Part shown: positions 1 through 13,545 of the stretch, one piece after another | How positions within the stretch are numbered: the first letter of the stretch is position 1 | How the letters are laid out: each line of letters starts with the position of its first letter | NCBI GenBank assembly: GCA_900556645.1 | Contig: USPJ01000008.1 | Span: forward strand, 1-13,545 | From: an uncultured Lachnospiraceae bacterium | GTDB lineage: Bacteria; Bacillota_A; Clostridia; Lachnospirales; Lachnospiraceae | Reading direction: 5' to 3' | Length of the DNA stretch: 13,545 bases | The notes under the pieces: model-generated | The model's input: the letters and a program-made list of their open reading frames with translations, nothing else | What the model was told of the DNA's origin: nothing | The model's database searches: none | Program-made: the position numbers and the translations under genes

Positions 1-1261
1 CAGAAGCCGGAGTGTTTCCTTCCTCCGGGTTCCCCTCTTTGACTGCCATACGAAAGCATATTGCCCCTATGACAAAAAGTACTGCAATCATCCCCACACC
101 TTTATTAATATCTCCGGTTAACTGGGATACTCCGCTGACAATGGCAGTTCCCATAAAGGAAGCTCCCTTTCCGCAGATGTCCATCAAGCCAAAATATTCT
201 CCCGACTGCTCTGCCGGAATAATTTTGGTAAAGTAGGAGCGGGACAATGCCTGTATTCCTCCCTGAAACATTCCTACGAAGATTGCCAGTATCCAGAACT
301 GAAACTGTGTCTTTAAAAAGACTGCGTAAACTGCAATTCCCAGATAGGCAAAAATACAGAGCATTATCAGCTTGGCTGTTTCATATTTCTGTGCCAATCT
401 CCCAAACAGAATCGCAAAAGGGAACGCCACTATCTGAGTTACCAGCAATGCCAGCAACAGACCGGTACTGTCCAATCCCAAAGCGGAGCCATAGGCTGTT
501 GCCATATCGATAATGGTATACACTCCGTCAATGTAGAAGAAAAATGCCAGCAGAAACAGGAAGATTTTCTTTTCTTTCCTGATACTTTTAAAGGTCTCTC
601 CCAAACGTTTGAAGCTGTCTGCCACAGCATGTTTTCTTTTCTCCACATAATATTTTTGCTGATAGTTTTTTATCAACGGCATAGAAAACACCAGCCACCA
701 TGCCGCAATGATTCCAAAGGCAATTGCCATGGCACTCTCCATGGACAGACCGATACTCTCTGCCCCCAGAACCAATCCCAGACATATGACAAAAGGAATA
801 CAGCTTCCTATGTACCCCCACGCAAAGCCTTGGGAGGACACATCATCCATCCTCTCTTCTGTTGTTACATCGGACAGCATGGAATCGTAAAAAATCAAGC
901 TGCCGGAAAAGCCCACTTTGGCAATAACAAAAATTACCAGAAACAGCACCCATTGTTTTGCCAGTCCCAGACTGATACAGCCTATGGCTCCCACCACGAT
1001 AAAGGTGGTAAAAATCGGCTTTTTGTAACCCTTTGTATCTGCCAGCGTTCCGAATACCGGTCCCAGAAGAAGCATAATCAGGGTTGCCGCAGAGGCCGCA
1101 TATCCCCAGTAAGCCAAATACTCCACGGAGGACAGTCCCGCATTGCCTGCCAGATAGTTAAAATAAATCGGCATGATTGTGGATATCAGCAATACAAACG
1201 CCGAATTTCCCACATCATATAAAATCCAGTTTTTTTCACTTTTCGTCAATTTAAATTTCAT
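1..1261 (-). CDS. UMF1-family MFS transporter, 3' end cut by window edge
   Basis: An uninterrupted minus-strand frame runs from an ATG at 1261-1259 to the window edge with no stop, giving about 420 visible residues. The N-terminus carries WILYDVGNSAF (residues 12-22), close to the YDWANSAF signature of the UMF1/Atg22-like branch of the major facilitator superfamily. Many hydrophobic segments follow, including an MFS-type loop LGPVFGTLADTKGYKKP, a charged central loop (KNYQQKYYVEKRKHAVADSFKRL) and a second half with a GIQALSRSYF segment. It is an integral membrane protein; the substrate is unknown, and UMF1 members are poorly characterised. The ATG overlaps the TGA of the upstream phospholipase-C-like gene (ATGA), so translation is probably coupled and both sit in one operon. 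Visible length is near the family norm, so only the extreme C-terminus should be missing. No frameshift was found when I read the whole frame. Confidence 0.9.
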   Translation of the reverse strand, partial: MKFKLTKSEKNWILYDVGNSAFVLLISTIMPIYFNYLAGNAGLSSVEYLAYWGYAASAATLIMLLLGPVFGTLADTKGYKKPIFTTFIVVGAIGCISLGLAKQWVLFLVIFVIAKVGFSGSLIFYDSMLSDVTTEERMDDVSSQGFAWGYIGSCIPFVICLGLVLGAESIGLSMESAMAIAFGIIAAWWLVFSMPLIKNYQQKYYVEKRKHAVADSFKRLGETFKSIRKEKKIFLFLLAFFFYIDGVYTIIDMATAYGSALGLDSTGLLLALLVTQIVAFPFAILFGRLAQKYETAKLIMLCIFAYLGIAVYAVFLKTQFQFWILAIFVGMFQGGIQALSRSYFTKIIPAEQSGEYFGLMDICGKGASFMGTAIVSGVSQLTGDINKGVGMIAVLFVIGAICFRMAVKEGNPEEGNTPAS

Positions 1262-2091
1262 CCTGCTTTTTCCTCTTTCTCCGGCTCCTTTGTTCCAAAG
1301 GTATACCGGTATATCTCATCTAAAGGTTTCTTGTTTTCCAAATAATCTCCATACTCCAAAATCAGTCGGATTGCCAGTTCCTTTGCATTCTGATACAGCC
1401 CCGACAGATTCTTCGTACTCATTTCACAGTCTGGGTTTTTCTCATAATTTACCATCAGTCCATGCATCTCTTTATAATTCCCCGTAGCTTTTAACAACGC
1501 ACAAACAAGCCAGCGTTTTCCCTTTGAAGGTGTAATTAACAAGTGGTTGTGAAAAATCATACTCTCCAAGGATTCCTGCACTTGCTCCACCGTAGCCGCC
1601 GGGTAAAATTCCTTTATGACTTTTGCATTTTCCAAAGATGGTACGATATGTCCGGTCAACTCCTGCCGCAGCGGATCTAATCCATCCATCAACATCAGCT
1701 CCCGGTCAAACTCCACCTCAATCTCCGTATGGGTAATACCGCTTTCCTCTATCCTGCGGTCTATGTATCCGTGACAGGTAACATCCAATGCAAAGTGACA
1801 AATTACTCCGTAAACATATGCAAGATATGCTTCTCGCTCCTCTGTATCCTTGTGTTTTTCGATTACCTGTGCCGCTCTCTCAAAAAATTCTGCCCCGGCT
1901 CTGCCGTGGGTTCCATATCCGATTTGGTTTACCGGATGGATTCTTAAGGGTTTATAGTAGAAAAAAATGTCCGGTCCATGAAGCCCAATCAGATACAGTT
2001 CCGAATGTGCGGCTATTATCCTCCGTTCTTCTCCCCGTAATTTTTCCTTTACCTCCTGCCCCATCCTGTAATGTGCATATGTAGATGGCAT
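1258..2091 (-). CDS. Zinc-dependent phospholipase C-family protein
   Basis: This 277-residue protein resembles the zinc-dependent phospholipase C / S1-P1 nuclease-like fold (Zn_dep_PLPC family). Candidate metal ligands are spread through the chain as expected: H7 in TYAHYRMG, H39 and D41 in HGPDIFF, H62, then H99, D103 and H107 in VICHFALDVTCHGYI, and H121 and E125 in HTEIEVEFDREL. No signal peptide is visible, so it is probably cytoplasmic, unlike secreted clostridial alpha-toxins. Phospholipase activity is therefore not established; a phosphoester hydrolase is the safer statement. The frame stays open upstream to 2235, but I start at the ATG at 2091 because AAAGGAG lies 8 nt before it and the upstream codons overlap a terminator hairpin. 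It overlaps the UMF1 transporter by 4 nt. Confidence 0.85.
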   Translation of the reverse strand: MPSTYAHYRMGQEVKEKLRGEERRIIAAHSELYLIGLHGPDIFFYYKPLRIHPVNQIGYGTHGRAGAEFFERAAQVIEKHKDTEEREAYLAYVYGVICHFALDVTCHGYIDRRIEESGITHTEIEVEFDRELMLMDGLDPLRQELTGHIVPSLENAKVIKEFYPAATVEQVQESLESMIFHNHLLITPSKGKRWLVCALLKATGNYKEMHGLMVNYEKNPDCEMSTKNLSGLYQNAKELAIRLILEYGDYLENKKPLDEIYRYTFGTKEPEKEEKAG

Positions 2092-2163
2092 GTAGCTTTC
2101 TCCTTTCCTCTTTCTGTTTCTGCTCCCATTGTAGAAAGATTTTTCGCTCCATGCTATCATGAT

Positions 2164-2193
2164 AATGTAAAAGTCTTGTGAAAAAATTGTAAA
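2164..2193 (-). promoter_or_regulatory. Possible promoter for the PLC-like/UMF1 unit
   Basis: On the minus strand TTTACA (2193-2188) is followed after 18 nt by TACATT (2169-2164), a moderate sigma-70-type match. This leaves a leader of roughly 65 nt before the ATG at 2091. It lies directly after the terminator of the HEPN/MNT unit, where a fresh promoter is expected. The assignment rests on consensus matching only. Confidence 0.35.
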
Positions 2194-2216
2194 ACCCAGA
2201 AAGTACCAGAAATGGA

Positions 2217-2248
2217 AGAAAAAACTGCCACTCATTCGAGTGACAGTT
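2217..2248 (-). terminator. Rho-independent terminator after the HEPN gene
   Basis: On the minus strand an 11-bp stem, AACTGTCACTC paired with GAGTGGCAGTT (one U-G pair, loop GAAT), spans 2248-2223 and runs straight into a T-run. It starts 22 nt beyond the HEPN stop codon and closes the MNT/HEPN transcription unit before the PLC-like gene. Confidence 0.85.
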
Positions 2249-2270: not shown

Positions 2271-2699
2271 TTATGAAAATTTTTCTTCTTTGATGTTAGC
2301 AATGTATTCCTCTACTTTGTTCAACACATACTCAGCATTCTCTATTTGTTCCTGTGTATCATTTTTACTGGCCACAAACATATCATCATAATCCGAAGCA
2401 TTTCTGATAATAAACGCAGAACCTATCATCTGAGACATTTCTTTGGAAAATATTCCTTCTTTAATATATTTTCTTCTAAATTCTGCTATGACCCCGCTAT
2501 GTTTACTGGAATCAAAATTATCAAATACAAGCACTGCTCTCATAGAATGAAACATAGCATAATATGCACGATTATTGGCAACTCGATAATTGTCATTTTG
2601 AAACAAAAGGCGAGCAGCCTTTAAATCCTCTCTGGCTCTTTCTAAACGATATGTTGCGTAATCTCTCTGCATATCAAAATTCTCAGGCAATCCTAACAC
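2271..2699 (-). CDS. HEPN domain protein, probable toxin partner of the adjacent MNT
   Basis: This small all-helical protein (142 residues from the GTG at 2699) matches the HEPN family: YRLERAREDLKAARLLF (residues 17-33), the signature NRAYYAMFHSMRAVL (43-57), KHSGV (66-70) and RNASDYDDMF (99-108). HEPN proteins paired with a minimal nucleotidyltransferase form MntA/HepT-type (type VII) toxin-antitoxin modules in which HEPN is usually the RNase toxin. The classical R-x4-6-H motif is not evident at R99; R44-x6-H51 fits the spacing but lies in the family's conserved helix. The start is uncertain: the GTG at 2699 abuts AGAGG with no spacer, an in-frame TTG at 2690 has better spacing, and an ATG at 2672 gives the usual family N-terminus. 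The two long starts overlap the MNT gene, implying coupling. The gene is much more AT-rich than its neighbours. Confidence 0.85.
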   Translation of the reverse strand: MLGLPENFDMQRDYATYRLERAREDLKAARLLFQNDNYRVANNRAYYAMFHSMRAVLVFDNFDSSKHSGVIAEFRRKYIKEGIFSKEMSQMIGSAFIIRNASDYDDMFVASKNDTQEQIENAEYVLNKVEEYIANIKEEKFS

Positions 2700-3018
2700 C
2701 CTCTTTCTCTACATTTTGATAAAAACGAGATACATTTAAATATTGCTGATACACCTGATAACTTTGAAATATTGGAGTTAATACCACGTCATATTCTAAA
2801 TCAAGCTTATCAGAAACAGAAAATATTTTCTTCTGCTCCTGACTGATTAAGTCTCGAGGAACATCTAACAAAACCAGAATATCAATATCGCTATCCTGCG
2901 AAAAATCCCCTCTGGCACAAGAGCCATATAAAATAACATCATGTAACTTTACTCCGTATACTTTTTTCGCTTCTTCCACAAACAAAGTTACAACTTCTTT
3001 TATCTTGTCGTTATCCAT
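2683..3018 (-). CDS. Minimal nucleotidyltransferase (MNT), MntA-like antitoxin candidate
   Basis: This 111-residue DNA polymerase beta-type nucleotidyltransferase carries the active-site motif G32-S33-x10-D44-x-D46 in GSCARGDFSQDSDIDILV, and a likely third carboxylate D77 in EYDVVLTP. It therefore looks catalytically complete. In MntA/HepT pairs the MNT protein modifies the HEPN toxin with AMP and neutralises it; that role here is inferred from pairing with the HEPN gene, which follows with an overlap of up to 17 nt. I chose the ATG at 3018 because AGAGAGG lies 6 nt upstream; an in-frame ATG at 3042 has no such site. AT content is high: sampled lines of the two-gene cassette are about 30% GC against roughly 47-58% in lines of flanking genes, suggesting separate acquisition. 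Confidence 0.88.
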   Translation of the reverse strand: MDNDKIKEVVTLFVEEAKKVYGVKLHDVILYGSCARGDFSQDSDIDILVLLDVPRDLISQEQKKIFSVSDKLDLEYDVVLTPIFQSYQVYQQYLNVSRFYQNVEKEGVRIA

Positions 3019-3060
3019 ACAGCACCTCTCTTTCAAATTCATTTTATAATTTGATTTTCT

Positions 3061-3116: not shown

Positions 3117-4868
3117 TCACACCGGCAAGCTATCCCTCACGCAAAGTGTTCCCCAGCCCAGTTCTGGATTTGGATACTCCTGGACCGCTGCAATATGCCC
3201 GGCACCGTGCATCAGGTATGCCTTTACTTTCTCTCCGTAAAGGAACAAATCATTTCCATTGACAATTCCCCATTCCATCAAAAGTGCCGCACTTCCCGTC
3301 ACAAAAGGCGTTGCCATGGAGGTTCCCGAGGCAGTCACATAACCACCTCCCACCGCACAGGAAGTGATATCCACACCGGGAGCAGCAATATCCGGCTTTA
3401 TCTGATTGGTCTGCCGGGTAAATCCCCGTCCCGAAAAATCAGCCAGCTGTTTTAATCTTGCATCATATGCTCCCACCGTAATGACCCGTGCTGCGGTGGA
3501 CGGAATGGTAAGGGTGGTCTCCTCCGTGGGATAGAGAAAACCCGTTCCCACACTCAGAATTGTCTCGCTTGGCAGCCACATATTATAAATCCCTAACACA
3601 ATCCTCCGTGGAAACAGTTCTACCCGCCAGACACCGCTGTTGATATAAGTCCTAACCGGAAGAAAGGTAATATAGATTTCCTGAAATTCGCTGTAAGGAC
3701 TAGGTTCTCCGTAATAGAGTAATATCTCCGTATCATCCAGCGTAAAACGCTGTGTTCCCAAAATCTTTTGCAACGGACCCACTCGTTTGCCTGACGGTGA
3801 AATCAGTGCAATATCAAAGTCATCCACATAGCTTTTCCAGATTTGCAGACTGAGGGTAGTTTCATAAGGTGCCACCGCCAACTCCACCTCTTTTCGCATA
3901 CCCACTACCAGACTTCCCCGGGTGTGTCCACGTGCCGCACCTTCGTTTCCGCTTCCCACACAGATAACACTTTTTCCATAATTGGAAATATCACTCATAA
4001 AGGTTTCCAATAATGCTGTTCCGCTGTGGGCACCGTAAGTATTTCCGATACTGATGTTGACAGCTACCGGTTTTCCATAGGAAATGGATTTTCGCAGCAC
4101 ATAGTCCAGTGCCGTCATCAGCTCCGTGGTCCGTGGAAAGGAACGCTCCCCCGGATAACCCAGTTTTACAATTAAAAGGTCACTTTCCGGTGCAACCCCC
4201 TGATATCTGCCGTTAGATTCGTTTCCATTTCCTGCCGCAATTCCTGCTACATGGGTCCCGTGACCACTGGTGTCCCGGCTTCTGACAATCCTTAATCCCT
4301 CCTCCCTGCTTCCGGCATCTAACGCCCGGTTTATTTCCTCTCTCGTGTACTCCACGCCTCTGCGAAATCCCTCCGGGATTCGTTCTCCCTCTCCGGCTGT
4401 CAGCGTTTGATCCCAGATATCCAGAATCCGTGTGCTGCCGTCGCGGTTTCTGAAGTCCCTATGAAAATAGTCAATTCCTGAATCGATTACCGCGGTAATC
4501 ACCCCTCGTCCGGTCAACGCCAGCGGCTCCCTCTGTACCGGAAGGATACAGGACTCTCTTACCCCATCCAACAGAGAGAAAAAAAGGTTTTTCGGTTTTT
4601 CCACATACTCCACCTCAACCTGTTGTGCCACCGCATCAATCAGTGGTTCCGGCACGTTTAAAATGGCATATTCGTTTGTCAGCTCTTCCACCGTGATTCC
4701 GTCGCCCATTTCCTCCAGTCTCTGTATATTTCCGTTATATTTTACAATCAGCTCCCATGTATTGGTGGCCTGCTGATATCCAACATTCAACTCTGCCGAT
4801 TTTTCCCGTTCCTCCTCCGTGGCATTTAACGCCAGATTCAAAAGATTCTCTAATTTTCCGTTATACAT
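3117..4868 (-). CDS. S8 family serine peptidase, CspA/CspB-like subtilisin
   Basis: This 583-residue subtilisin-like protease has a complete triad: D129 in AVIDSGID, H203 in SGHGTHVAG and S517 in GTSMATP, plus oxyanion-hole N308 in GSGNEG. The N-terminal ~115 residues look like a prosegment. A ~130-residue insert (about 325-455), rich in predicted beta structure, separates the oxyanion and Ser regions, as in clostridial CspA/CspB germination proteases with a jelly-roll insert. Motifs YFHRDF and STRILDIWDQT also fit that group. No signal peptide or membrane segment is visible, so it is cytoplasmic or exported by another route. The ATG at 4868 follows AAGGAAG at 8 nt spacing. No germination genes (sleC, cspC) are nearby, so a germination role is only one option. 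It begins 42 nt past the alpha-galactosidase terminator. Confidence 0.9.
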   Translation of the reverse strand: MYNGKLENLLNLALNATEEEREKSAELNVGYQQATNTWELIVKYNGNIQRLEEMGDGITVEELTNEYAILNVPEPLIDAVAQQVEVEYVEKPKNLFFSLLDGVRESCILPVQREPLALTGRGVITAVIDSGIDYFHRDFRNRDGSTRILDIWDQTLTAGEGERIPEGFRRGVEYTREEINRALDAGSREEGLRIVRSRDTSGHGTHVAGIAAGNGNESNGRYQGVAPESDLLIVKLGYPGERSFPRTTELMTALDYVLRKSISYGKPVAVNISIGNTYGAHSGTALLETFMSDISNYGKSVICVGSGNEGAARGHTRGSLVVGMRKEVELAVAPYETTLSLQIWKSYVDDFDIALISPSGKRVGPLQKILGTQRFTLDDTEILLYYGEPSPYSEFQEIYITFLPVRTYINSGVWRVELFPRRIVLGIYNMWLPSETILSVGTGFLYPTEETTLTIPSTAARVITVGAYDARLKQLADFSGRGFTRQTNQIKPDIAAPGVDITSCAVGGGYVTASGTSMATPFVTGSAALLMEWGIVNGNDLFLYGEKVKAYLMHGAGHIAAVQEYPNPELGWGTLCVRDSLPV

Positions 4869-4909: not shown

Positions 4910-4936
4910 AAAAAAAGAACCCCCTTTTAGGGGCTC
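4910..4936 (-). terminator. Rho-independent terminator of the alpha-galactosidase operon
   Basis: On the minus strand GAGCCCC (4936-4930) pairs with GGGGTTC (4923-4917, one G-U pair) around a 6-nt loop, and seven Ts follow (4916-4910). It begins 4 nt after the alpha-galactosidase stop and ends the tetR-to-alpha-galactosidase unit. Confidence 0.9.
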
Positions 4937-4939
4937 TCA

Positions 4940-7282
4940 TTACTCAGCTTCCATGAAATAGATACGGGATGCAAAATCCGGGAAATACCGGACCTCTTCG
5001 TTATATCCGGTACCGCCAAATGCCGGTTTCAAATGGACACCGCTATACATCAGCGTATCACCGTAAGCATAACAATCTTCCGTCTCGCCTTCCAGCTTTA
5101 CAAATTTCGCAACCAGATTATGAGCCAGAGAATCCTGCCGAATGTGTACCGGAGATTGGGTATTGATTAAATCTCCAAATTCTTTGATATTATATTTTCC
5201 TTTTCGATTGTAAAAATGGTATCGGTATTCCTCACACAATCCCTTTGGTTTGTAATATTCCCATTGGGCATTGGCTTTTGTCAGCCTCTGCATCAGAAAG
5301 CCCACAGCTTTCTTCCGATTCGGTGATACACAGGTCCACTCTATGACATTACCGTTTCTTCCCCGGTAAAATTCGCCTTTTTGCAGGACTTCCCTCCACT
5401 CCTTATAGAGCTGAATCTGTGCCTTGATTTCTTCCAACTCTTCTTTTTTCATATCTGAAAAATTACATTCATATCCCAGCACACCAAAACATGCCACATG
5501 GAATCTTGTTTCCAGCGGGGTATTCCGAAGGGTCTGATGATTGGGACATGCAGACACATGGGCTGATACCACCGACATAGGATACCCATAGCTGTATCCG
5601 TTTTGAATATCCACACGGCATAGGGCATCTGTGTTATCGCTGGCCCATATCTGCGGAAAATAGCACAGGATTCCTAAGTCAAAACGATTTCCTCCTGCGG
5701 AACACCCTTCAAACAGAATATCAGGAAACCGTTGGGTTAAGGTTTTCATACAACGGTACAGTCCCATCACATACCGGTGTGCCACCTCTCCCTGACGCTC
5801 CGGTGGAAGTGCCATAGAATAATAATCCGAAACAATACGGTTCATATCCCATTTTACATAAGAAATATCTGCGGATGAAAATACTCTGCTCATGGTCTCA
5901 ATGATATAGTCCTGAACCTCCACCTGCCCCATATCCAAAATTCTCTGGTTTCTGCCCTCGGAGTGGGGTTTTCCCGGAATCTGCATCACCCATTGAGGAT
6001 GTTCTTCATAGAGCCTGCTTTTGACATTCACCATCTCCGGCTCTACCCAGATTCCAAAATCCAAACCCAGAGCTTTTATCTTTTGGCACAACCCGGACAG
6101 ACCATGGGGCAGTTTTTTTTGATTTTCTTCCCAATCTCCCAAAGACTGTGTATCATCCTCTCTGTTTCCAAACCAGCCGTCATCCATGACAAACAACTCT
6201 ACTCCGGCATCTTTTCCCGCCTTAGCCAGAGACAGCAGTTTCTTTTCATTGATGTCAAAATAAGATGCCTCCCAGCTATTTAAAAGAACGGGACGCAGTC
6301 GTTCCTTCCAGACACCCCGCACGATATGCTCCCGGACAAACCGATGCATATTCCGGCTCATGCCATTACAGCCTTTTTCAGAGTAGGACATGACTGCCTC
6401 CGGAGCTTCAAAGCTCTCTCCCGGTTCTATCCGAAAAGAAAAGGATTGAGGATTGATTCCCGACACAATTCTGGTTTTTCCGCCACTGTGAACCTCTACT
6501 GCCTCATAATGATTTCCGCTATATATCAGATTAAATCCATAACAGTCCCCATAATCCTCCGTGGTTGTTTCCTTTTCTAACATAACAAAGGGATTGGAAC
6601 GGCTGGAGGAGGTTCCGGTATAAGAGGAATTTACCAGCTTTCCCCCGGTCATCCGGCAACTGGTTTTCTCCATTTCCCTTGCCCATGCTCCATGAAAAGT
6701 AGTAAAGACATAATCCGGTGTATCAAAGTCTAGCTGCATACTCATCAGACGTTTTAATTCCACCGGCTCTTTCCCTTCATTATACAGCTTGGTACATCGG
6801 GTAATCACATCACAATCTTCGTAAATGTAATAATGAAGCTCCAGTTTCAAGTCATACTGCTTATCTCGCAGGGTCACCAAAAGATGCTCTACCTCATCCT
6901 CCGTCCCATAGGAACCGGGAAGGGTTTCAAATTCTTCCTTTCCCTTTGTGATTTCTGCCTTTTCAAAGAGAAAGTCAGAGGTTATGCTGCCATCGCTGTG
7001 AACCACCTCTATCAAAGGCTCTCTGATATCCCCTTTTCCATAGGAGGACATTTCCAGACGGACATCCTCCAGAGAAAATTTTTTCTGATTTTGATTATAT
7101 GCAATGCTGTTTCCCAAAGGAAAAACATGAGGCTCCACGCAGGCACTCAGTTCCTCCTGCGTGTTTGCTGTGATTTTCCTTCCATAATAGAGATGCTCCA
7201 AATGCCCGGTCTCCATAACCCGAAAGCAATAAGAGGTATGTTTTGTACTACATAGGAAACTTTCCTTATCTCTTAAAATCAT
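4940..7282 (-). CDS. Alpha-galactosidase, glycoside hydrolase family 36
   Basis: This 780-residue GH36 enzyme removes terminal alpha-1,6-galactose from melibiose, raffinose, stachyose or related galactosides with retention of configuration. The catalytic nucleophile is D479 in YVKWDMNR and the acid/base is D549 in WASDNTDA; other GH36 landmarks are LNSWEASYFD (334-343), VMDDGWFG (365-372), GIWVEPEMV (410-418), FEGCSAGGNRFD (524-535) and CPNHQTLRNTPLETRFH (579-595). The large N-terminal beta-sandwich and C-terminal domain are present. There is no signal peptide, so it acts inside the cell on imported sugar, matching the symporter gene 10 nt upstream. The ATG at 7282 follows GAGGGGA. It is the last gene of its operon, with a terminator 4 nt after its stop. 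Exact substrate preference cannot be read from sequence. Symbols aga, rafA and melA are all used for such genes, so none is given. Confidence 0.96.
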   Translation of the reverse strand: MILRDKESFLCSTKHTSYCFRVMETGHLEHLYYGRKITANTQEELSACVEPHVFPLGNSIAYNQNQKKFSLEDVRLEMSSYGKGDIREPLIEVVHSDGSITSDFLFEKAEITKGKEEFETLPGSYGTEDEVEHLLVTLRDKQYDLKLELHYYIYEDCDVITRCTKLYNEGKEPVELKRLMSMQLDFDTPDYVFTTFHGAWAREMEKTSCRMTGGKLVNSSYTGTSSSRSNPFVMLEKETTTEDYGDCYGFNLIYSGNHYEAVEVHSGGKTRIVSGINPQSFSFRIEPGESFEAPEAVMSYSEKGCNGMSRNMHRFVREHIVRGVWKERLRPVLLNSWEASYFDINEKKLLSLAKAGKDAGVELFVMDDGWFGNREDDTQSLGDWEENQKKLPHGLSGLCQKIKALGLDFGIWVEPEMVNVKSRLYEEHPQWVMQIPGKPHSEGRNQRILDMGQVEVQDYIIETMSRVFSSADISYVKWDMNRIVSDYYSMALPPERQGEVAHRYVMGLYRCMKTLTQRFPDILFEGCSAGGNRFDLGILCYFPQIWASDNTDALCRVDIQNGYSYGYPMSVVSAHVSACPNHQTLRNTPLETRFHVACFGVLGYECNFSDMKKEELEEIKAQIQLYKEWREVLQKGEFYRGRNGNVIEWTCVSPNRKKAVGFLMQRLTKANAQWEYYKPKGLCEEYRYHFYNRKGKYNIKEFGDLINTQSPVHIRQDSLAHNLVAKFVKLEGETEDCYAYGDTLMYSGVHLKPAFGGTGYNEEVRYFPDFASRIYFMEAE

Positions 7283-7292
7283 AATTTTCCCC

Positions 7293-8675
7293 TCACTCCT
7301 GAATGCTGTGTCTCTTCTTCAACTCTCCATTAATCTCTTCTATCTTTTTCTCTGTCAGCAGATATTTTTTATGAAAGAGGAATACTGCTACTAAGAATCC
7401 GATAATCGGAATTACGGTCATGGTTAAACGAAGTCCCATAACAGAGCTTCCTGCAACTGCCGCCTCTGCTGCTTGACTGGTATCATTACTGAGATTGAAT
7501 ATGGTAAGGCAAACGGATGCTACCATGGCTGCCACACCGGAGGCAAGTTTTACTACAAAGGTCTGCATGGAGAAAATCACACTTTCATCCCGTCGTCCGT
7601 TTTTTACTTCTCCATAATCTACGGTATTCGCCAAAAATACGGTTGTCAAAACAGTCACTATTCCGAATGCTGCAAAGATGAAAAAGCCCGGAACAAACAG
7701 AAGGATTATATTCTTTTCTCCTGTAACCATCAATCCCAGCAGAATGCCATATCCGATAACTGCCATTACAATGCTGACATAGAAGATACGGATGCTGTCC
7801 ATGAATTTACGCAATAGCGGATAAAATATCATCATCGACAGAATCTGCATTGCTCCCCCAAAAATATTGAATAACGTATAGCTATTATACCACTGGCTTC
7901 CACCAAAATCATATTTAAAGAAGTAAATAACCAGATTGGAGGTAATATAAAGGGAACAGTTTATAAGTACAATAATCATAACTACTGCTACCGCCTGATC
8001 ATTCTGGAACAATGCACGGAACATCTGACCTACGGAAGGTGCCTCCACATCCACTGTGGATTTTTCCTTAATGCTCAGACAGGTAATTGTAATGGCAATC
8101 ACAAAAATAACGGCAATGACCAGACTGAACCATTTAAAACCTATCCGCTCATTTCCCTGTCCCATAAAGTAAACACATTTCATAGTGATAATGGTAACAA
8201 TCGCAGAACCTACACCGGCACAGGAACGGGCTAGCGTAGACAATCCCTCTCTTTCCTTACCGCCTTCTGTAAATGCCGGAATCATGGACCAGAAAGGAAT
8301 ATCCATCATGGTGTAAGTGACACCCCACAGTACATAGGTAATTGCTGCATAGGCAATCAAACCATTTCCACTCAGGGCAGGCGGTGCCGCAAACAACAGT
8401 ACCAGTATAACAGCATTTAGTAAGGTTCCTACAAACAGCCATGGACGGAATTTTCCCCAGCGGGTTCTGGTTTTTGCCACCAAAATTCCCATGATTGGGT
8501 CATTGAAGGCATCAAACACACGGGCTGCCATCAATATGACACCCATGGCAAGTGCCTTTACCCCTAAAATATCCTGATAATAATATAAAATGTAACTTGC
8601 CGAGAGCATATATACCATGTCTTTTCCCACTGCTCCCAGACCGTAAGATGCTTTTTCTTTTGCTGTAAGTTTCAT
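7293..8675 (-). CDS. GPH-family sugar:cation symporter, MelB-like
   Basis: This 460-residue membrane protein has about 12 hydrophobic segments and belongs to the glycoside-pentoside-hexuronide:cation symporters. Residues equivalent to the MelB cation and sugar site are present at nearly identical positions: D19, R52, D55 and D59 (GKDM; ARVFDAFNDPIMG), D125 in MMDIPFWS and K376 in QTFVVKLASG. The cytoplasmic loop RTRWGKFRPW (70-79) is also typical. It should bring alpha-galactosides such as melibiose or raffinose into the cell with H+ or Na+; conserved acidic residues make Na+ possible but do not prove it. It lies between the GT-B gene (17 nt gap) and the alpha-galactosidase (10 nt gap), so uptake and hydrolysis are co-transcribed. 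The ATG at 8675 has GGAAAGGGG 5 nt upstream. Confidence 0.93.
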   Translation of the reverse strand: MKLTAKEKASYGLGAVGKDMVYMLSASYILYYYQDILGVKALAMGVILMAARVFDAFNDPIMGILVAKTRTRWGKFRPWLFVGTLLNAVILVLLFAAPPALSGNGLIAYAAITYVLWGVTYTMMDIPFWSMIPAFTEGGKEREGLSTLARSCAGVGSAIVTIITMKCVYFMGQGNERIGFKWFSLVIAVIFVIAITITCLSIKEKSTVDVEAPSVGQMFRALFQNDQAVAVVMIIVLINCSLYITSNLVIYFFKYDFGGSQWYNSYTLFNIFGGAMQILSMMIFYPLLRKFMDSIRIFYVSIVMAVIGYGILLGLMVTGEKNIILLFVPGFFIFAAFGIVTVLTTVFLANTVDYGEVKNGRRDESVIFSMQTFVVKLASGVAAMVASVCLTIFNLSNDTSQAAEAAVAGSSVMGLRLTMTVIPIIGFLVAVFLFHKKYLLTEKKIEEINGELKKRHSIQE

Positions 8676-8692: not shown

Positions 8693-10156
8693 CTATTTCT
8701 TCTGCATGGCAAGCTCTACCACCTTATAAGCACCGTCATAGATACCTGCCTCTTTATTAGCTACAATATTGTCACACATATCCGTAAGATAGTGTTCATC
8801 CTCCATAAAAAGTTTCAACATTTGCAGTGTGTGTGGAATGTCCTCACATTCCAAGGTTCCTTCTCCCAGCTCTGCGGAATGAATGGCTCCCCATTGCTCA
8901 TGTCCTCCAACCCGCTGAATAAACAGCTTTGGAACCGGATAAAATGCCAGCTCGCTGGGTTTTGTCACAAGCACATCGCAACTTCTCATCAACAGATTCG
9001 TACAATACACTGCTTCAAAAATATTTTCATGCCAGAAAACATGAATCCCGCTAATGTCCTTTTTCAAAGCTCCTTCTGCAAAGCTTTTGGTTTCTTTCCA
9101 ATCATTCAAATGTTCCTCTGCCAGTCCTCTTAAGCCTGCTATCTCTCCCGCCAATTCTTCCCACACATTCCGGTAATCTCCCACATTGATATAAAGTGCT
9201 GCCTTTTTTTCTCTGATAGCCGGAAGAAGGTAGCGAATGATTTCTGCAAAGATTTCTTTTTGTGCTCCCGCTCCTCCCACAGTCAAAAGAAAACGCATCG
9301 GCTTTTTCTCTTCTTTTCTCTTTCTCCTTGATTCACAATCTGCTGGGATATTGGTTACCAGTTCATGGTCGATATAATGTCCGGTGTAGACCAAATCCTT
9401 TTCCGGCATAGGCTTCAAAACCTCTTTTTTCTTCATACCGTTTAAGATACGGTAGCCCTGATACGCATAGTGGGTCTGAACCGTGTGGATACTTCCCTCT
9501 GCCAGATGCAACGCCATTGGCCAGTTGTCCGGTATGGCATTTACCACATACTCCATCCCCGCATGGACTGCTGCCTGTGCCGGCCACACATGGGTGGCAA
9601 CCACCGGAATCTCTTTTGGTATATTCCGATACACCGGTGCCATCAGCTCTGCATTTTTCTGGTCCGAAGCATTGTAGGACAGTTTACGGAAACCTTCATA
9701 ATTCAAAGGCTCCCAGACCACCTTGTTAAAAATCTTACTCTTTCCCGACATTCTTGAACCCATGGAATAGAGGCGGTTCTGTTCACTGATAACTTTCGTG
9801 CAGACGGTCTGCTCATAGGAATTCAAATCCATCCAATAAGGAGTATATCCCATGGCGTGAGCCGCCGAGGCAATCGCCATAGAGATTCGATAATGGCCGA
9901 ATCCCATACGGATATTTCCCACAATGATTCCTTTTTCTCTGTCAAATTCTTCCCCTTCCTCCTTCTTCTGTTCCAGACGAATGTCCTGCACTCCCAGAAT
10001 ATCTCCAATATGTTGATTCCGATAGACGTACACCGGATAATTCACCTTACTGTCCTCACCGAATTTTTTCTGGTATTTTCTCTTGGACTTCTGTGCTTTC
10101 CGGCAGACACTTTCCGGCATCTGATTCCCAAAAATCTCTCTGGACCTTTCTTTCAT
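8693..10156 (-). CDS. GT-B fold glycosyltransferase-like protein of unknown substrate
   Basis: I recognise only a fold-level resemblance, to GT28-type enzymes (MurG, MGDG synthase, UgtP). Over 487 residues these parts are visible: a basic N-terminal stretch (about 1-75); a Rossmann entry GNIRMGFGHYRIS (80-92), similar to the GGGH loop of GT28; THVWPAQAAVHAG (188-200); a linker GHYIDHEL (259-266); a second Rossmann start LLTVGGAGAQ (290-299), like MurG's GGSxGA; and DVLVTKPSELAF followed closely by PVPKLFIQRVGGHEQWGA (394-424), matching the donor-sugar region but lacking the usual EALAxGLP segment. No signal peptide or membrane span is seen. It begins 4 nt after tetR, with GAGG of its ribosome site overlapping the tetR stop, and is followed by the symporter. 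It could transfer a sugar from UDP-Gal or UDP-Glc to a lipid or glycan, or have lost that activity. Substrate and role are unknown. Confidence 0.75.
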   Translation of the reverse strand: MKERSREIFGNQMPESVCRKAQKSKRKYQKKFGEDSKVNYPVYVYRNQHIGDILGVQDIRLEQKKEEGEEFDREKGIIVGNIRMGFGHYRISMAIASAAHAMGYTPYWMDLNSYEQTVCTKVISEQNRLYSMGSRMSGKSKIFNKVVWEPLNYEGFRKLSYNASDQKNAELMAPVYRNIPKEIPVVATHVWPAQAAVHAGMEYVVNAIPDNWPMALHLAEGSIHTVQTHYAYQGYRILNGMKKKEVLKPMPEKDLVYTGHYIDHELVTNIPADCESRRKRKEEKKPMRFLLTVGGAGAQKEIFAEIIRYLLPAIREKKAALYINVGDYRNVWEELAGEIAGLRGLAEEHLNDWKETKSFAEGALKKDISGIHVFWHENIFEAVYCTNLLMRSCDVLVTKPSELAFYPVPKLFIQRVGGHEQWGAIHSAELGEGTLECEDIPHTLQMLKLFMEDEHYLTDMCDNIVANKEAGIYDGAYKVVELAMQKK

Positions 10157-10160
10157 ATCT

Positions 10161-10733
10161 TTACCTCGCTTTTTCTGTTAAAACAATTCCGTTCATCAAA
10201 ATATTTACCACTTCGTCCAATGCCTCCGCATAGGAGATATTGTTGCGTATCAGAATATCTCTCTGGAAGAACTGTTCCAATGTTGCTTCCATCATCATCT
10301 TTAGAATCGGTATCTTAATCGGCTGTATCACTCCCTCTTCCATGCCCTGTTCCAAAAGTGCGATGGTAGTTTCCCAGCCTGTCTCCAAACGCTTCTCTAC
10401 CTGTTTGTAAATATTGGGATACTTATCCTTCAGCAGATATAGCTGTTGGAAATTTACCTCCCGATAGCCCTCTGGCAGTACTCCCAGAATTCCGTGTATT
10501 TTCTCCACCGTAGTCAGACTCTCGTCATTTACAACCTTTTGCTCGCTTTCCTTAATGGTATCAAAGAGATAATCTACCATTGCCAGAAACAATTCTTCCT
10601 TATCCCTAAATACCGTATAAATGGTTTTTTTACTGATTCCCAAAATACCGCAGATGTCATCCATGGTAAACTTCAATCCTTTTTTATTGAAGGCCTGTAA
10701 TGTCCCCAGTAAAATCTTCTCCCGTAACTCCAT
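10161..10733 (-). CDS. TetR-family transcriptional regulator of the alpha-galactoside operon
   Basis: This 190-residue regulator has an N-terminal TetR helix-turn-helix, TMDDICGILGISKKTIYTVF (residues 23-42), followed by RDKEELF, and a divergent helical C-terminal ligand domain. The frame extends upstream to 10847, but the ATG at 10733 is chosen because AGGAGG lies 6 nt before it and the HTH then falls at the normal distance from the N-terminus. It is the first gene of the four-gene operon and sits opposite galK, so it is likely autoregulated and may also control galK-galT. The paired palindromes upstream (10760-10785 and 10819-10844) are candidate operators. The inducer is unknown: sugar-operon regulators are more often LacI, AraC or GntR types, so a TetR controlling this set is unusual, and a lipid-like ligand is conceivable given the GT-B neighbour. 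Confidence 0.92.
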   Translation of the reverse strand: MELREKILLGTLQAFNKKGLKFTMDDICGILGISKKTIYTVFRDKEELFLAMVDYLFDTIKESEQKVVNDESLTTVEKIHGILGVLPEGYREVNFQQLYLLKDKYPNIYKQVEKRLETGWETTIALLEQGMEEGVIQPIKIPILKMMMEATLEQFFQRDILIRNNISYAEALDEVVNILMNGIVLTEKAR

Positions 10734-10759
10734 GATTCTCCTCCTGACTTTCAAATTTG

Positions 10760-10785
10760 GAAACTCATTTTTAATATATAGTTTC
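10760..10785. promoter_or_regulatory. Candidate TetR operator 1 (GAAACT-N14-AGTTTC)
   Basis: GAAACT at 10760-10765 is mirrored by AGTTTC at 10780-10785 with an AT-rich 14-nt centre; an extra flanking base pair (G/C) extends each arm. The half-sites are 20 bp apart centre to centre, about two helical turns, so both face the same side. It covers the predicted transcription start of tetR, an effective repression position. Confidence 0.65.
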
Positions 10786-10789
10786 CTGT

Positions 10790-10818
10790 ATGGTACCATG
10801 TTCTTGTTTTTCTCACAA
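10790..10818 (-). promoter_or_regulatory. Predicted promoter of the tetR-GT-B-symporter-alpha-galactosidase operon
   Basis: On the minus strand TTGTGA (10818-10813) is followed after 17 nt by TACCAT (10795-10790) with an extended -10 TG one base upstream. Each hexamer matches the consensus at 4 of 6 positions. The -35 directly abuts candidate operator 2 and the start site falls in operator 1, which supports the assignment. Confidence 0.5.
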
Positions 10819-10821
10819 GAA
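10801..10821. repeat. 21-bp inverted repeat over the tetR promoter spacer
   Basis: TTCTTGT (10801-10807) and ACAAGAA (10815-10821) form a perfect 7-bp inverted repeat with a 7-nt centre. It overlaps the predicted -35 hexamer and the first bases of operator 2, and its length is typical of operators for dimeric regulators. Confidence 0.55.
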
Positions 10822-10844
10822 ACTATTTTCATAAAATTAGTTTC
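10819..10844. promoter_or_regulatory. Candidate TetR operator 2 (GAAACT-N14-AGTTTC)
   Basis: GAAACT (10819-10824) and AGTTTC (10839-10844) repeat the arms and exact spacing of operator 1, 59 bp away, while the 14-nt centre differs. It lies just upstream of the predicted tetR -35 and between the two divergent promoters, so it could affect either direction. Confidence 0.65.
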
Positions 10845-10916
10845 CATTTTTTATTACTTTTTACCAAAGGTCTTTTAGTAATAATTGCACAATTTTTGGT
10901 TTTTCACGGCAGACAG

Positions 10917-10946
10917 TTGACACCTATCTTTTTCACGTGCTATTTT
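10917..10946 (+). promoter_or_regulatory. galK-galT promoter
   Basis: A perfect -35 TTGACA (10917-10922) is followed after 18 nt by TATTTT (10941-10946), with TG at the extended -10 position. Transcription would start near 10953, giving a leader of about 40 nt before the galK TTG. The nonamer TTTTTCACG occurs on both sides of the -35 (10900-10908 and 10929-10937). Confidence 0.7.
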
Positions 10947-10975
10947 TGATTCAATCTTATGGTGTTATTTCAAGA

Positions 10976-10984
10976 AAGGAAGGG
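10976..10984 (+). promoter_or_regulatory. Ribosome binding site that fixes the galK TTG start
   Basis: A purine-rich AAGGAAGGG lies 6 nt before TTG at 10991. No ATG occurs at a suitable place in this frame, so the site decides in favour of the TTG over the GTG at 10937, which lies inside the promoter. Confidence 0.75.
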
Positions 10985-10990
10985 TTTGTT

Positions 10991-12157
10991 TTGATAGAAC
11001 AACTAACTACTATTTTTTATGATACTTTTGGAGAGGGCGGAGATATCCGCTGTTACTTCTCTCCCGGTAGAGTCAATCTGATTGGCGAACACACCGATTA
11101 TAACGGCGGTCACGTATTTCCCTGTGCCCTTACCATCGGCACTTATTTTCTGGTTCGGAAACGTCAGGACCGTCAGATGCGTTTCTATTCCGAAAATTTT
11201 AAAACTTTAGGCATTTCAGAGCGGTCTCTTGAGGATATTTCCATTCAGCAGGATAATCACTGGGTCAACTATCCCATGGGAATTATCTGGACTTTGGAAC
11301 AGAACGGCTACACGGTACCCCAAGGCTTTGACCTTTTGGTATACGGAACGATTCCCAACAGCTCCGGTCTGTCCTCCTCTGCTTCTATTGAAGTGGGAAC
11401 CGCCTTTTTTCTGAACGACTTCTTCGGGTTTGGACTGAGTCTTACGGATATGGCAAAGCTTAGCCAATATTCGGAAAATCACTACAACCATGTAGCCTGC
11501 GGCATTATGGATCAGTTCTCCATTGCCATGGGCAAAAAAGATCATGCTATCTTTTTAGATACCAATACCCTTCAATACGAATATGTTCCGGTACTTTTAG
11601 AGGACGCTAAAATCATTATTTCCTGCAGCAACAAAAAGCGGGGACTGTGTGATTCTCTATACAATGAACGCCGTCGGGAATGTTCTGCGGCTTTGGCCCA
11701 GATTCAGGAGGTGGTGGGAATTGATTCTCTGGGTGACCTTACCCGGGAACAATTTGACCTCTATCAGACTGCCATCCGTGACAAAAATTGGAAAAAACGT
11801 GCCAAACATGCGGTTTCCGAAAATCTGCGAACCGTAGAGGCTGTAAAGGTTTTGCAGGAGGGAAATCTGGAAAAATTCGGTGAGCTTATGGTGGCTTCCC
11901 ACAATTCTCTGCGGGATGACTTTGAGGTAACCGGCATGGAACTGGATACCCTTGTGGAGGCTGCCCTTGCACAGGAGGGCGTCATTGGCTCCCGCATGAC
12001 CGGAGCCGGTTTTGGCGGCTGCACCGTCAGTATTGTAAAAAACGGCTGTGAAGGAAATTTTATGAAGAATGTGGGAAATATATATCTGGACAAAATTGGT
12101 TATGCCGCTGACTTTTATATAGCAGAGATTGGCGACGGCGTCAGACGTATTTTCTAA
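10991..12157 (+). CDS. galK: Galactokinase
   Basis: GalK phosphorylates alpha-D-galactose at C1 with ATP, the first step after alpha-galactoside hydrolysis in the Leloir pathway, in the cytoplasm. The 388-residue product has the normal length and all GHMP-kinase signatures: GRVNLIGEHTDYNGG (26-40, with catalytic R27 and sugar-binding residues), the ATP loop PNSSGLSSSAS (122-132), catalytic base D174 in GIMDQFS, and RMTGAGFGGC (335-344). The start is TTG at 10991, giving MIEQLTTIFYDTFG; the same frame could be read from a GTG at 10937, but that codon lies between the predicted -35 and -10 and cannot be in the transcript. galT follows after 13 nt, so the two are co-transcribed, divergently from the tetR operon. 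Confidence 0.97.
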   Translation: MIEQLTTIFYDTFGEGGDIRCYFSPGRVNLIGEHTDYNGGHVFPCALTIGTYFLVRKRQDRQMRFYSENFKTLGISERSLEDISIQQDNHWVNYPMGIIWTLEQNGYTVPQGFDLLVYGTIPNSSGLSSSASIEVGTAFFLNDFFGFGLSLTDMAKLSQYSENHYNHVACGIMDQFSIAMGKKDHAIFLDTNTLQYEYVPVLLEDAKIIISCSNKKRGLCDSLYNERRRECSAALAQIQEVVGIDSLGDLTREQFDLYQTAIRDKNWKKRAKHAVSENLRTVEAVKVLQEGNLEKFGELMVASHNSLRDDFEVTGMELDTLVEAALAQEGVIGSRMTGAGFGGCTVSIVKNGCEGNFMKNVGNIYLDKIGYAADFYIAEIGDGVRRIF

Positions 12158-12170
12158 GGAAGGAGCTAAT

Positions 12171-13545
12171 ATGATTCATCAAGCAATCCAACAACTGGTT
12201 CTCTACGGCATAAGGACAGGCCTTACCCCACCGGAAGAACGTATCTACACCACAAATCTTATCTTAGATGTTTTAAATCTGGATTCTTACGCAGAACCGG
12301 AGGAACCCTCTGAGCCATGGCAGTTAGAAACCATTTTGGAAAAACTTTTAACCTACGCTGTTTCCCATGGACTGGTGGAAGACAATACCGTATCCCGGGA
12401 CCTGTTTGACACCAAGCTGATGAACTGTCTTATGCCACGACCAGCACAGGTACAAAAAACTTTTTGGGAAAAGTACGACAGTTCTCCTAAAGTGGCAACG
12501 GATTATTACTATGAACTGAGTCAAAACTCCGACTATATCCGCAGATATCGGGTCTGCAAAGATTTGAAATGGACGGTGGATACAGAGTACGGAACCATTG
12601 ATATCACCATCAACCTCTCCAAGCCGGAGAAGGACCCGAAAGCCATCGCTGCCGCTAAAGCGGCTGCTTCTGTGGATTATCCGAAATGCCTTCTCTGTAT
12701 GGAGAACGAGGGATATGCCGGAAGATTGAACCATCCTGCCAGAGAAAACCACCGGATTATTCCCCTTACCTTAGGGAATACCGGGTATGCTCTTCAATAC
12801 TCCCCTTATGTTTACTATAATGAGCATTGCATCGTATTCAATCAGCAGCATACCCCTATGGAAATCACACCAGCCACCTTCCGTCGGCTCTTTGACTTTG
12901 TGAAACAATTTCCACATTACTTTTTAGGCTCCAATGCCGACCTTCCCATTGTAGGCGGCTCTATTCTGACCCATGACCATTTTCAGGGGGGATGCTACTC
13001 CTTTGCTATGGAAAAGGCTCCGGTAGAATATGAATTTACAGTAAAGGGCTATGAAGATGTGCAGATTGGCATTGTAAAATGGCCGCTTTCCGTCCTACGG
13101 CTCTGGTGTAGCGATGAGCAACGTGTAATCGCTCTGGCATCACATATTTTAGAGATTTGGAGAAATTATACCGATGAAGAGGCTTTCCTGTTTGCCCATA
13201 CAAATGGGGAAAATCACAATACCATTACCCCCATTGCCCGTTATCGGGATTCCATGTATGAATTGGATTTGGCCCTTCGCAACAATCTTACAACAGAGGA
13301 ATATCCACTGGGAGTTTACCATCCTCACAGCGAATATCATCACATAAAAAAAGAAAACATCGGCTTGATTGAAGTTATGGGACTTGCAGTACTCCCTGCC
13401 CGTTTAAAAACCGAACTGGAGCTTTTAAAAGAATATATTTTAGAGAAAAAAGATATTCGTTCCAATGATAAGATTGCCAAACATGCCCAATGGGTGGAGG
13501 AATTCCTGCCAAAATATACAATTACGGATGAAGCTTCCCTTACTA
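12171..13545 (+). CDS. galT: UDP-glucose--hexose-1-phosphate uridylyltransferase, class II GalT, cut at window end
   Basis: GalT exchanges UMP between UDP-glucose and galactose-1-phosphate, giving UDP-galactose and glucose-1-phosphate. The frame is open from ATG 12171 to the window edge, 458 residues, so a short C-terminal part is missing from a family usually near 490-510. It is the Firmicute class II type: N-terminus IHQAIQQLVLYGIRTGL, CLLC (173-176), NHPARENHRIIPL (187-199), and active site GGSILTHDHFQGG (262-274) with H268-D-H270-x-Q272, where the second His should carry UMP. Class I enzymes have HPHxQ here. GGAAGGAG precedes the start by 5 nt. The gene is absent from simple closed-ORF lists because its stop lies outside. 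galE would be expected downstream or elsewhere. Confidence 0.96.
   Translation, partial: MIHQAIQQLVLYGIRTGLTPPEERIYTTNLILDVLNLDSYAEPEEPSEPWQLETILEKLLTYAVSHGLVEDNTVSRDLFDTKLMNCLMPRPAQVQKTFWEKYDSSPKVATDYYYELSQNSDYIRRYRVCKDLKWTVDTEYGTIDITINLSKPEKDPKAIAAAKAAASVDYPKCLLCMENEGYAGRLNHPARENHRIIPLTLGNTGYALQYSPYVYYNEHCIVFNQQHTPMEITPATFRRLFDFVKQFPHYFLGSNADLPIVGGSILTHDHFQGGCYSFAMEKAPVEYEFTVKGYEDVQIGIVKWPLSVLRLWCSDEQRVIALASHILEIWRNYTDEEAFLFAHTNGENHNTITPIARYRDSMYELDLALRNNLTTEEYPLGVYHPHSEYHHIKKENIGLIEVMGLAVLPARLKTELELLKEYILEKKDIRSNDKIAKHAQWVEEFLPKYTITDEASLT

What the first reader, a model, noticed from the sequence alone, without database searches (positions are those of the whole stretch)
8693..10156. Uncharacterised GT-B protein embedded in an alpha-galactoside catabolic operon
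Regulator, GT-B protein, symporter and alpha-galactosidase form one operon with 4, 17 and 10 nt gaps. The last two genes and the opposite galK-galT explain import and breakdown of alpha-galactosides; a GT28-like transferase has no place in that pathway. It may use UDP-galactose or UDP-glucose made through GalT to build a glycolipid or glycan when galactoside is available, or act as an unknown galactoside-processing enzyme. This is the best candidate here for an undescribed function.
Basis: partly seen in the sequence, partly recalled or inferred. Interest (0 to 1): 0.72.

Follow-up and report, generated by a model that had tools for sequence, protein, structure and literature searches.

The report
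Glycolipid-synthase-like enzyme in galactoside regulon
In many gut Clostridia, a set of genes for eating galactose-containing sugars also carries, under what looks like the same genetic switch, an unstudied enzyme whose predicted shape resembles those that attach sugars to membrane fats, which suggests the cell may use part of the imported galactose to build something instead of burning it.

Summary

The linkage is general: of 61 loci from one Clostridia family, 58 keep the symporter and/or GH36. Gene order varies, GH2 is often present, and operons of the same make-up exist without the gene. So it is an accessory, not a needed step.

New here: an operator-like palindrome, GGAAACT-N14-AGTTTCC, precedes the TetR gene in 85 of 95 distinct loci, a reversed control in none. 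In one 4.5-Mb genome the gene sits over 1 Mb from the operon, yet the only two exact sites lie before the operon and before this gene.

Best reading: a UDP-sugar transferase, probably lipid-directed, fed by the galactoside pathway. Donor, acceptor and TetR binding are untested. New variant of a known kind.

The parts
8693..10156 (-). Focal gene: DUF6937 (residues 8-237) + DUF6938 (250-484), GT-B glycosyltransferase-like protein, 487 aa
10161..10733 (-). TetR-family regulator, start re-assigned to ATG 10733 (190 aa); the listed ORF extends to 10847
10759..10786 (.). Operator-like palindrome O1, GGAAACT-N14-AGTTTCC, 0 mismatches
10818..10845 (.). Operator-like palindrome O2, 1 mismatch, 59 nt from O1
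7293..8675 (-). GPH-family cation symporter, MelB-like (460 aa)
4940..7282 (-). GH36 alpha-galactosidase (780 aa)
4915..4938 (-). Terminator-like hairpin and T tract after GH36
   Evidence: consensus match only
10937..12157 (+). galK, galactokinase (divergent; listed ORF start GTG)
12129..13544 (+). galT, galactose-1-phosphate uridylyltransferase; runs off the window. A better start is the ATG near 12171 (read by eye)

Best explanation
The gene encodes a UDP-sugar-dependent, probably inverting, GT-B glycosyltransferase distantly related to the UgtP/MGDG-synthase glycolipid transferases. It is an optional, co-regulated branch of a galactoside regulon. The TetR protein represses through GGAAACT-N14-AGTTTCC operators; when galactosides (or a molecule derived from them) arrive, the symporter, GH36, often a GH2 beta-galactosidase, and this transferase are made together. 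Imported galactoside is cut to galactose, GalK/GalT turn galactose into UDP-galactose, and the transferase spends UDP-galactose (or UDP-glucose) on a lipid acceptor, most simply a diacylglycerol-type lipid. Shown by computation: fold class on a predicted model, invariant motifs, linkage, shared palindrome, dispensability for the catabolic operon. Inferred: TetR binding to the palindrome and its inducer, catalytic activity, donor, acceptor. My odds: co-regulated with galactoside use 0.95; active UDP-sugar transferase 0.85; UDP-Gal rather than another donor 0.5; lipid acceptor 0.5.
Against: No Pfam glycosyltransferase model is hit up to E 1. The usual ribose-binding Glu position of UgtP-type enzymes is not conserved; a Glu four residues after the T of TKP (E402) stands instead, so the substrate site differs. 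Only the N-terminal helix 15-32 (net +7) hints at membrane contact; helices 118-176 are not strongly amphipathic. The lipase-like gene is in the same run in only 4 of 61 loci. Genomes with and without the gene do not differ clearly in having a separate UgtP/MGDG-type enzyme (4 of 41 against 6 of 39). The palindrome is missing near the TetR gene in 10 of 95 distinct loci (in L048 it lies before a chemoreceptor gene that heads the run), and 6 of 25 carrier genomes have no site at all with up to one mismatch. Of 40 loci where no TetR gene was called upstream, 2 have a site near the focal start and 6 have one within 7 kb upstream.
Confidence: 0.42

Rival explanations
1. Soluble-acceptor transferase: the enzyme galactosylates or glucosylates the imported galactoside, the sugar released from it, or a small metabolite, as storage, detoxification or relief of UDP-Gal / galactose-1-P stress (an analogue in role of lacA in the lac operon, recalled).
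For: GT-B fold alone does not fix a lipid acceptor; Foldseek also ranks trehalose synthases/transferases and small-molecule transferases. Linkage is to GH36-like and galactokinase-like genes even in variant clusters L187, L189, L190. The donor loop differs from UgtP.
Against: The two best sequence-profile relatives among solved structures are the lipid transferases UgtP and, marginally, MGD1; a 2-epimerase follows at E 1.2.
Confidence: 0.3
2. Galactolipid handling: the regulon takes up and breaks down plant galactolipid head groups (alpha-Gal by GH36, beta-Gal by GH2, acyl chains by the Hydrolase_4 enzyme), and the focal enzyme acts on the same lipids, either re-using the backbone or running in reverse to give UDP-galactose.
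For: GH36 + GH2 fits alpha-Gal-beta-Gal-glycerol (established chemistry of DGDG); the MGD1-like fold; Hydrolase_4 directly behind the focal gene under the exact palindrome in G663; the symporter also resembles lysophosphatidylcholine symporters, far more weakly than MelB (7.2e-15 against 1.6e-72).
Against: Lipase-like gene in only 4 of 61 runs; GH2 near in 27 of 61; GH36 and symporter look like ordinary oligosaccharide enzymes; reversal of an inverting transferase is energetically uphill for ordinary beta-galactosides (established knowledge, recalled).
Confidence: 0.15
3. Not a transferase: a UDP-sugar 2-epimerase-like or other non-transferring GT-B enzyme, or a sensor that has lost catalysis.
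Against: Lower Z than MGD1/MurG; G-loop His, Asp210, GGAG and TKP/GxxE motifs are invariant in 108 proteins, which argues against lost catalysis.
Confidence: 0.08
4. The linkage is passive: the gene rides with the operon without shared physiology.
For: Presence is patchy on the symporter tree (15 changes by parsimony, at least 5 forced by well supported branches).
Against: Gene orders differ yet linkage persists; the translocated copy keeps an exact palindrome.
Confidence: 0.05

Closest known systems
Plant MGDG synthase MGD1 (galactolipid synthase; PDB 4wyi, 4x1t)
   Different: 15% identity; the aligned region leaves out the first ~72 residues of the focal protein; no Pfam MGDG_synth hit; E402 in place of the usual ribose Glu position; lies in a catabolic regulon
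Bacterial UgtP/YpfP processive diacylglycerol beta-glucosyltransferase (PDB 9wde)
   Same: Only sequence-profile match below E 0.1 among solved structures (E 1.1e-9), best over the donor-binding half
   Different: Proteins of this class fetched here are about 381-383 aa with PF06925 (L096); the focal family has DUF6937/DUF6938 and an altered donor loop
MurG
   Different: No sequence-profile match listed up to E 10; context is galactoside use, not cell wall
MelB-GH36 (melibiose/raffinose-type) operons
   Same: Symporter close to MelB (E 1.6e-72) and GH36 close to AgaB/AgaA (E 3.9e-190)
   Different: TetR regulator with a GGAAACT-N14-AGTTTCC palindrome, frequent GH2, and the extra transferase

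Membership tests
Pfam DUF6937 + DUF6938 | Both models above gathering cut-off over nearly full length | tested here: met
   411.9 and 386.4 bits against cut-offs of 27
MGDG synthase / UgtP (PF06925, GT28-type) | Hit to PF06925 or Glyco_tran_28_C | tested here: not met
   neither listed up to E 1
MGDG synthase / UgtP (PF06925, GT28-type) | GT-B fold of the MurG/MGD1 type | tested here: met
MGDG synthase / UgtP (PF06925, GT28-type) | His in the N-terminal glycine loop | tested here: met
   MGxGHxR invariant in 108 proteins; MGD1 H155 role from PMC7419546 passages; that H88 is the equivalent residue is inferred
MGDG synthase / UgtP (PF06925, GT28-type) | Canonical ribose-binding Glu after the TKP motif | tested here: not met
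   alignment with 9wde has a gap there; E402 lies earlier (the ribose role of the canonical Glu is recalled)
MGDG synthase / UgtP (PF06925, GT28-type) | Transfers hexose from a UDP-sugar to diacylglycerol | not testable with these tools
   needs enzyme assay
Non-hydrolysing UDP-GlcNAc 2-epimerase | Epimerase fold and family match | tested here: inconclusive
GPH symporter, MelB type | GPH subfamily model over cut-off | tested here: met
   TIGR00792 374.8 bits against 231.35; the MelB equivalog model gives 384.4, below its cut-off 456
GH36 alpha-galactosidase | Melibiase plus GH36 N- and C-terminal domains | tested here: met

The most novel reading that the evidence does not exclude
Gut Clostridia hold a TetR-controlled galactolipid/galactoside regulon in which a galactolipid-synthase-like enzyme, sometimes paired with a monoacylglycerol-lipase-like enzyme, diverts diet-derived galactose (or plant galactolipid parts) straight into bacterial membrane glycolipid, so that the membrane composition follows the galactoside supply.
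Probability: 0.25. Interest if true: 0.78.

Novelty: new variant of a known kind. Interest (0 to 1): 0.52.

Why it matters
Two Pfam families of unknown function, with thousands of homologues (5747 scored matches for the window protein), gain a testable place: a transferase switched on together with galactoside import in gut Clostridia. If it makes a glycolipid, it would tie a dietary sugar directly to membrane or surface chemistry of gut bacteria. The palindrome gives a simple handle for finding other members of the regulon, and the G663 case suggests that regulation, not only gene order, holds the gene to the pathway.

Tried and rejected
Literature: searches. The terms DUF6937, DUF6938, PF22052 and PF22053 gave no paper. 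No paper describing this operon was recognised in the listings, but only the listings and abstract starts (10 to 20 titles or fewer per search) were seen. Only PMC7419546 was opened (12 passages).

Complementation idea: that the gene replaces a UgtP/MGDG-type enzyme. PF06925 is found in 4 of 41 genomes with the gene and 6 of 39 without; rejected.

Regulon-wide prediction with one mismatch allowed: in 25 carrier genomes 40 forward sites against 25 for the control (summed by hand), and 6 of the 25 have none, so one-mismatch sites elsewhere are mostly noise. I used exact sites: 12 in those genomes, of which I place 11 at the operon or the focal gene (by comparing) and 1 elsewhere (G702:C1:1992885). 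In the window a third match, with two mismatches, lies at 125-152, far from the operon.

Membrane anchor: helices of the model were checked for hydrophobic moment; only a basic N-terminal helix stands out, weak evidence.

DUF6938-only relatives sit in neighbourhoods without recognised galactoside genes in the five loci read by eye and gave no functional clue.

Fold search: no family's absence from the lists was used as evidence except as marked inconclusive.

The lipase-like profile was by mistake built from four proteins, one of them an unrelated 311-aa neighbour in L144; only hits above 300 bits were counted (four loci). One search used a table typed for 97 of its 117 genomes (matches below 45% identity left out). 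The tree used symporters of 400-640 aa scoring over 500 bits: 43 of the 62 gene-bearing loci L131-L192, the window, and the 20 loci without the gene; the label is only slightly more clustered than in shuffles (53 and 48 of 500 as low). ORF picking misses some focal, TetR and GH2 genes (for example L001, L025, L033), so the set-1 counts are lower bounds.

Full report
1. Observation. The window holds a minus-strand run TetR (ORF 10161-10847), focal gene (8693-10156), symporter (7293-8675), GH36 (4940-7282) with gaps of 4, 17 and 10 nt, opposite galK and galT (families). A terminator-like hairpin follows GH36 (consensus match only). The TetR start is better placed at ATG 10733, giving 190 aa, because the longer ORF runs through two palindromes and the TetR cluster of relatives has a median of 194 aa.

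2. The protein. Pfam gives DUF6937 at residues 8-237 and DUF6938 at 250-484, both far over cut-off; NCBIfam gives nothing over cut-off; no PDB sequence matches the single protein up to E 10. The database search scored 5747 relatives at E 1e-3 or better; among the 120 listed, the few source names are 'hypothetical protein'. A second search, from a more divergent relative, names one listed member 'DUF6937 domain-containing protein' and the other named ones 'hypothetical protein'. A third, from a distant relative, lists proteins that carry DUF6938 alone, mostly near 440 aa, some named as from Spirochaetes, Ignavibacteriaceae, Kiritimatiellales and Firmicutes; they average 23% identity to the first group over the 507 pairs with a long alignment.

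4. Linkage. Set 1: the 80 best of 547 confirmed loci in genome contigs, plus the window, 81 in all: symporter cluster 73, GH36 66, TetR 64, GH2 32 on the same strand nearby (lower bounds, because ORF picking missed some genes). Set 2, less biased: DUF6937 occurs once in each of 63 of 397 genomes of the family of the L004 genome (record titled Lachnospiraceae), and in 0 of 14 control genomes. I fetched 61 of the 63 (G001 was already held as L004; G442 is a fragment at a contig edge). Of 61, symporter-type MFS_2 55, GH36-type 52, both 49, either 58, GH2 27, TetR 38. The three without either are L136 (below), L161 (5.8-kb contig, galK adjacent) and L191 (4.8-kb contig). Ten set-2 loci repeat set-1 loci. 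Contig ends cut some others. Gene orders differ: focal-symporter-GH36, GH36-focal-symporter, symporter-focal-GH36, symporter-GH36-focal, so linkage has survived rearrangement. Representatives of the neighbour clusters were verified by Pfam as GH2 and GH36. Across the phylum sample DUF6938 rings in 13 of 398 genomes, 5 of them full orthologues at E 2.4e-104 or better.

5. Accessory, not essential. Close symporters (at least 58% identical) occur in 80 of 397 genomes: 41 with DUF6937 and 39 without. Of 20 fetched loci without it (20 of the 39), five show TetR-GH2-symporter-GH36 and two GH2-symporter-GH36, with the focal gene simply absent; two more have symporter-GH36; the other eleven have other contexts. 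On a symporter tree of 64 rows the gene's presence changes 15 times by parsimony, at least 5 forced by well supported branches (shuffled mean about 17.5). Assembly gaps could mimic some absences, but not the intact operons that lack it.

6. Shared regulation. The window has GGAAACT-N14-AGTTTCC at 10759-10786 (exact) and 10818-10845 (one mismatch); chance expectation for up to two mismatches is 0.09 per window, and one further two-mismatch site lies at 125-152. With up to two mismatches and a spacer of 14 or 15, the motif is found around the start of the TetR gene in 59 of 63 loci of set 1 and 31 of 38 of set 2, 85 of 95 after removing repeats (75 with up to one mismatch); a reversed control motif in 0. 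Loci without a called TetR have it near the focal start in 0 of 17 and 2 of 23; within 7 kb upstream, 6 of those 40 have a site with up to one mismatch. In L048 it lies before a chemoreceptor gene that heads the run. In genome G663 the focal gene lies at C1:715703, more than 1.1 Mb (if circular; 3.4 Mb if not) from TetR-GH2-symporter-GH36 at C1:4086052-4092708. The only two exact sites in that 4.5-Mb genome are at 4086007-4086034, before the TetR gene, and at 715648-715675, before the focal gene (a one-mismatch site overlaps the latter); the control motif gives 0 there. I take this as the strongest evidence that the gene belongs to the galactoside regulon. Among 25 carrier genomes searched, 12 sites are exact, 11 of which I place at the operon or focal gene; 6 of the 25 have no site with up to one mismatch, and the one-mismatch total (40) is not far above the control (25). 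That the TetR protein binds this motif is inferred.

7. A lipid hint. In G663 the gene directly behind the focal gene is a Hydrolase_4 protein whose solved relatives include monoglyceride lipases, though the best matches are described only as alpha/beta hydrolases. Close homologues occur in the same gene run in L144, L179 and L141: with L136, 4 of 61 loci. This is suggestive, not strong.

8. Mechanism. Best reading: an inverting UDP-sugar transferase, fed by the galactose pathway and acting on a lipid, derepressed together with galactoside uptake. The inverting label follows from the fold relatives (established for MGD1 and MurG, recalled). Donor and acceptor rest on nearest relatives and context only. 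Rivals: soluble acceptor; galactolipid handling; non-transferase; passive linkage, which is disfavoured.

9. Novelty. Pfam already names the two domains, and MGD1/UgtP/MurG-type folds are well known. I found no paper naming them nor, in the listings seen, one on this operon. The regulon, the palindrome and the accessory status are, as far as these searches go, new. I rate it a new variant of a known kind, interest about 0.5.

Noticed in passing
window 2271-3042 (-): HEPN protein (2271-2699) overlapping a nucleotidyltransferase-domain protein (2683-3042): a HEPN/MNT toxin-antitoxin-like pair (the pairing is recalled).
   Followed up: partly
window 3117-4868 (-): CspB-type germination protease-like subtilase with CspB prodomain.
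   Followed up: no
window 1258-2235 (-): Protein with a zinc-dependent phospholipase C family domain.
   Followed up: no
window 2-1261 (-): MFS transporter with an ATG22-family match, running off the window.
   Followed up: no
L048:3482-4957, L016:1633-3120, L035:4074-5531; L016:3147-4811: Chemoreceptor (MCP) genes, and in L016 also a GGDEF gene, ahead of the operon in relatives; in L048 the palindrome pair lies before the chemoreceptor, so it may belong to the regulon.
   Followed up: partly
L187:5466-11178, L189:2822-8729, L190:3-5446: Among the most divergent DUF6937 members: the gene sits between a different MFS_2 transporter plus a short GH36-like protein (about 540 aa) and a divergent galactokinase-like GHMP protein (Pfam check of L187 only).
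   Followed up: partly
L067:9481-11295 and similar frames in G636, G690, G505, G562, G664, G522: The MelB-like symporter is about 600-650 aa in some loci, matching the window's as two blocks split near residue 173: an extra stretch between the halves.
   Followed up: no
L193, L195 (intermediate relatives) and L196-L198 (distant relatives): Proteins of about 440-475 aa that carry DUF6938 alone, in varied bacteria and varied neighbourhoods; function unknown.
   Followed up: partly
L080:10871-13621: Natural GalK-GalT fusion protein (916 aa) downstream of the symporter.
   Followed up: no
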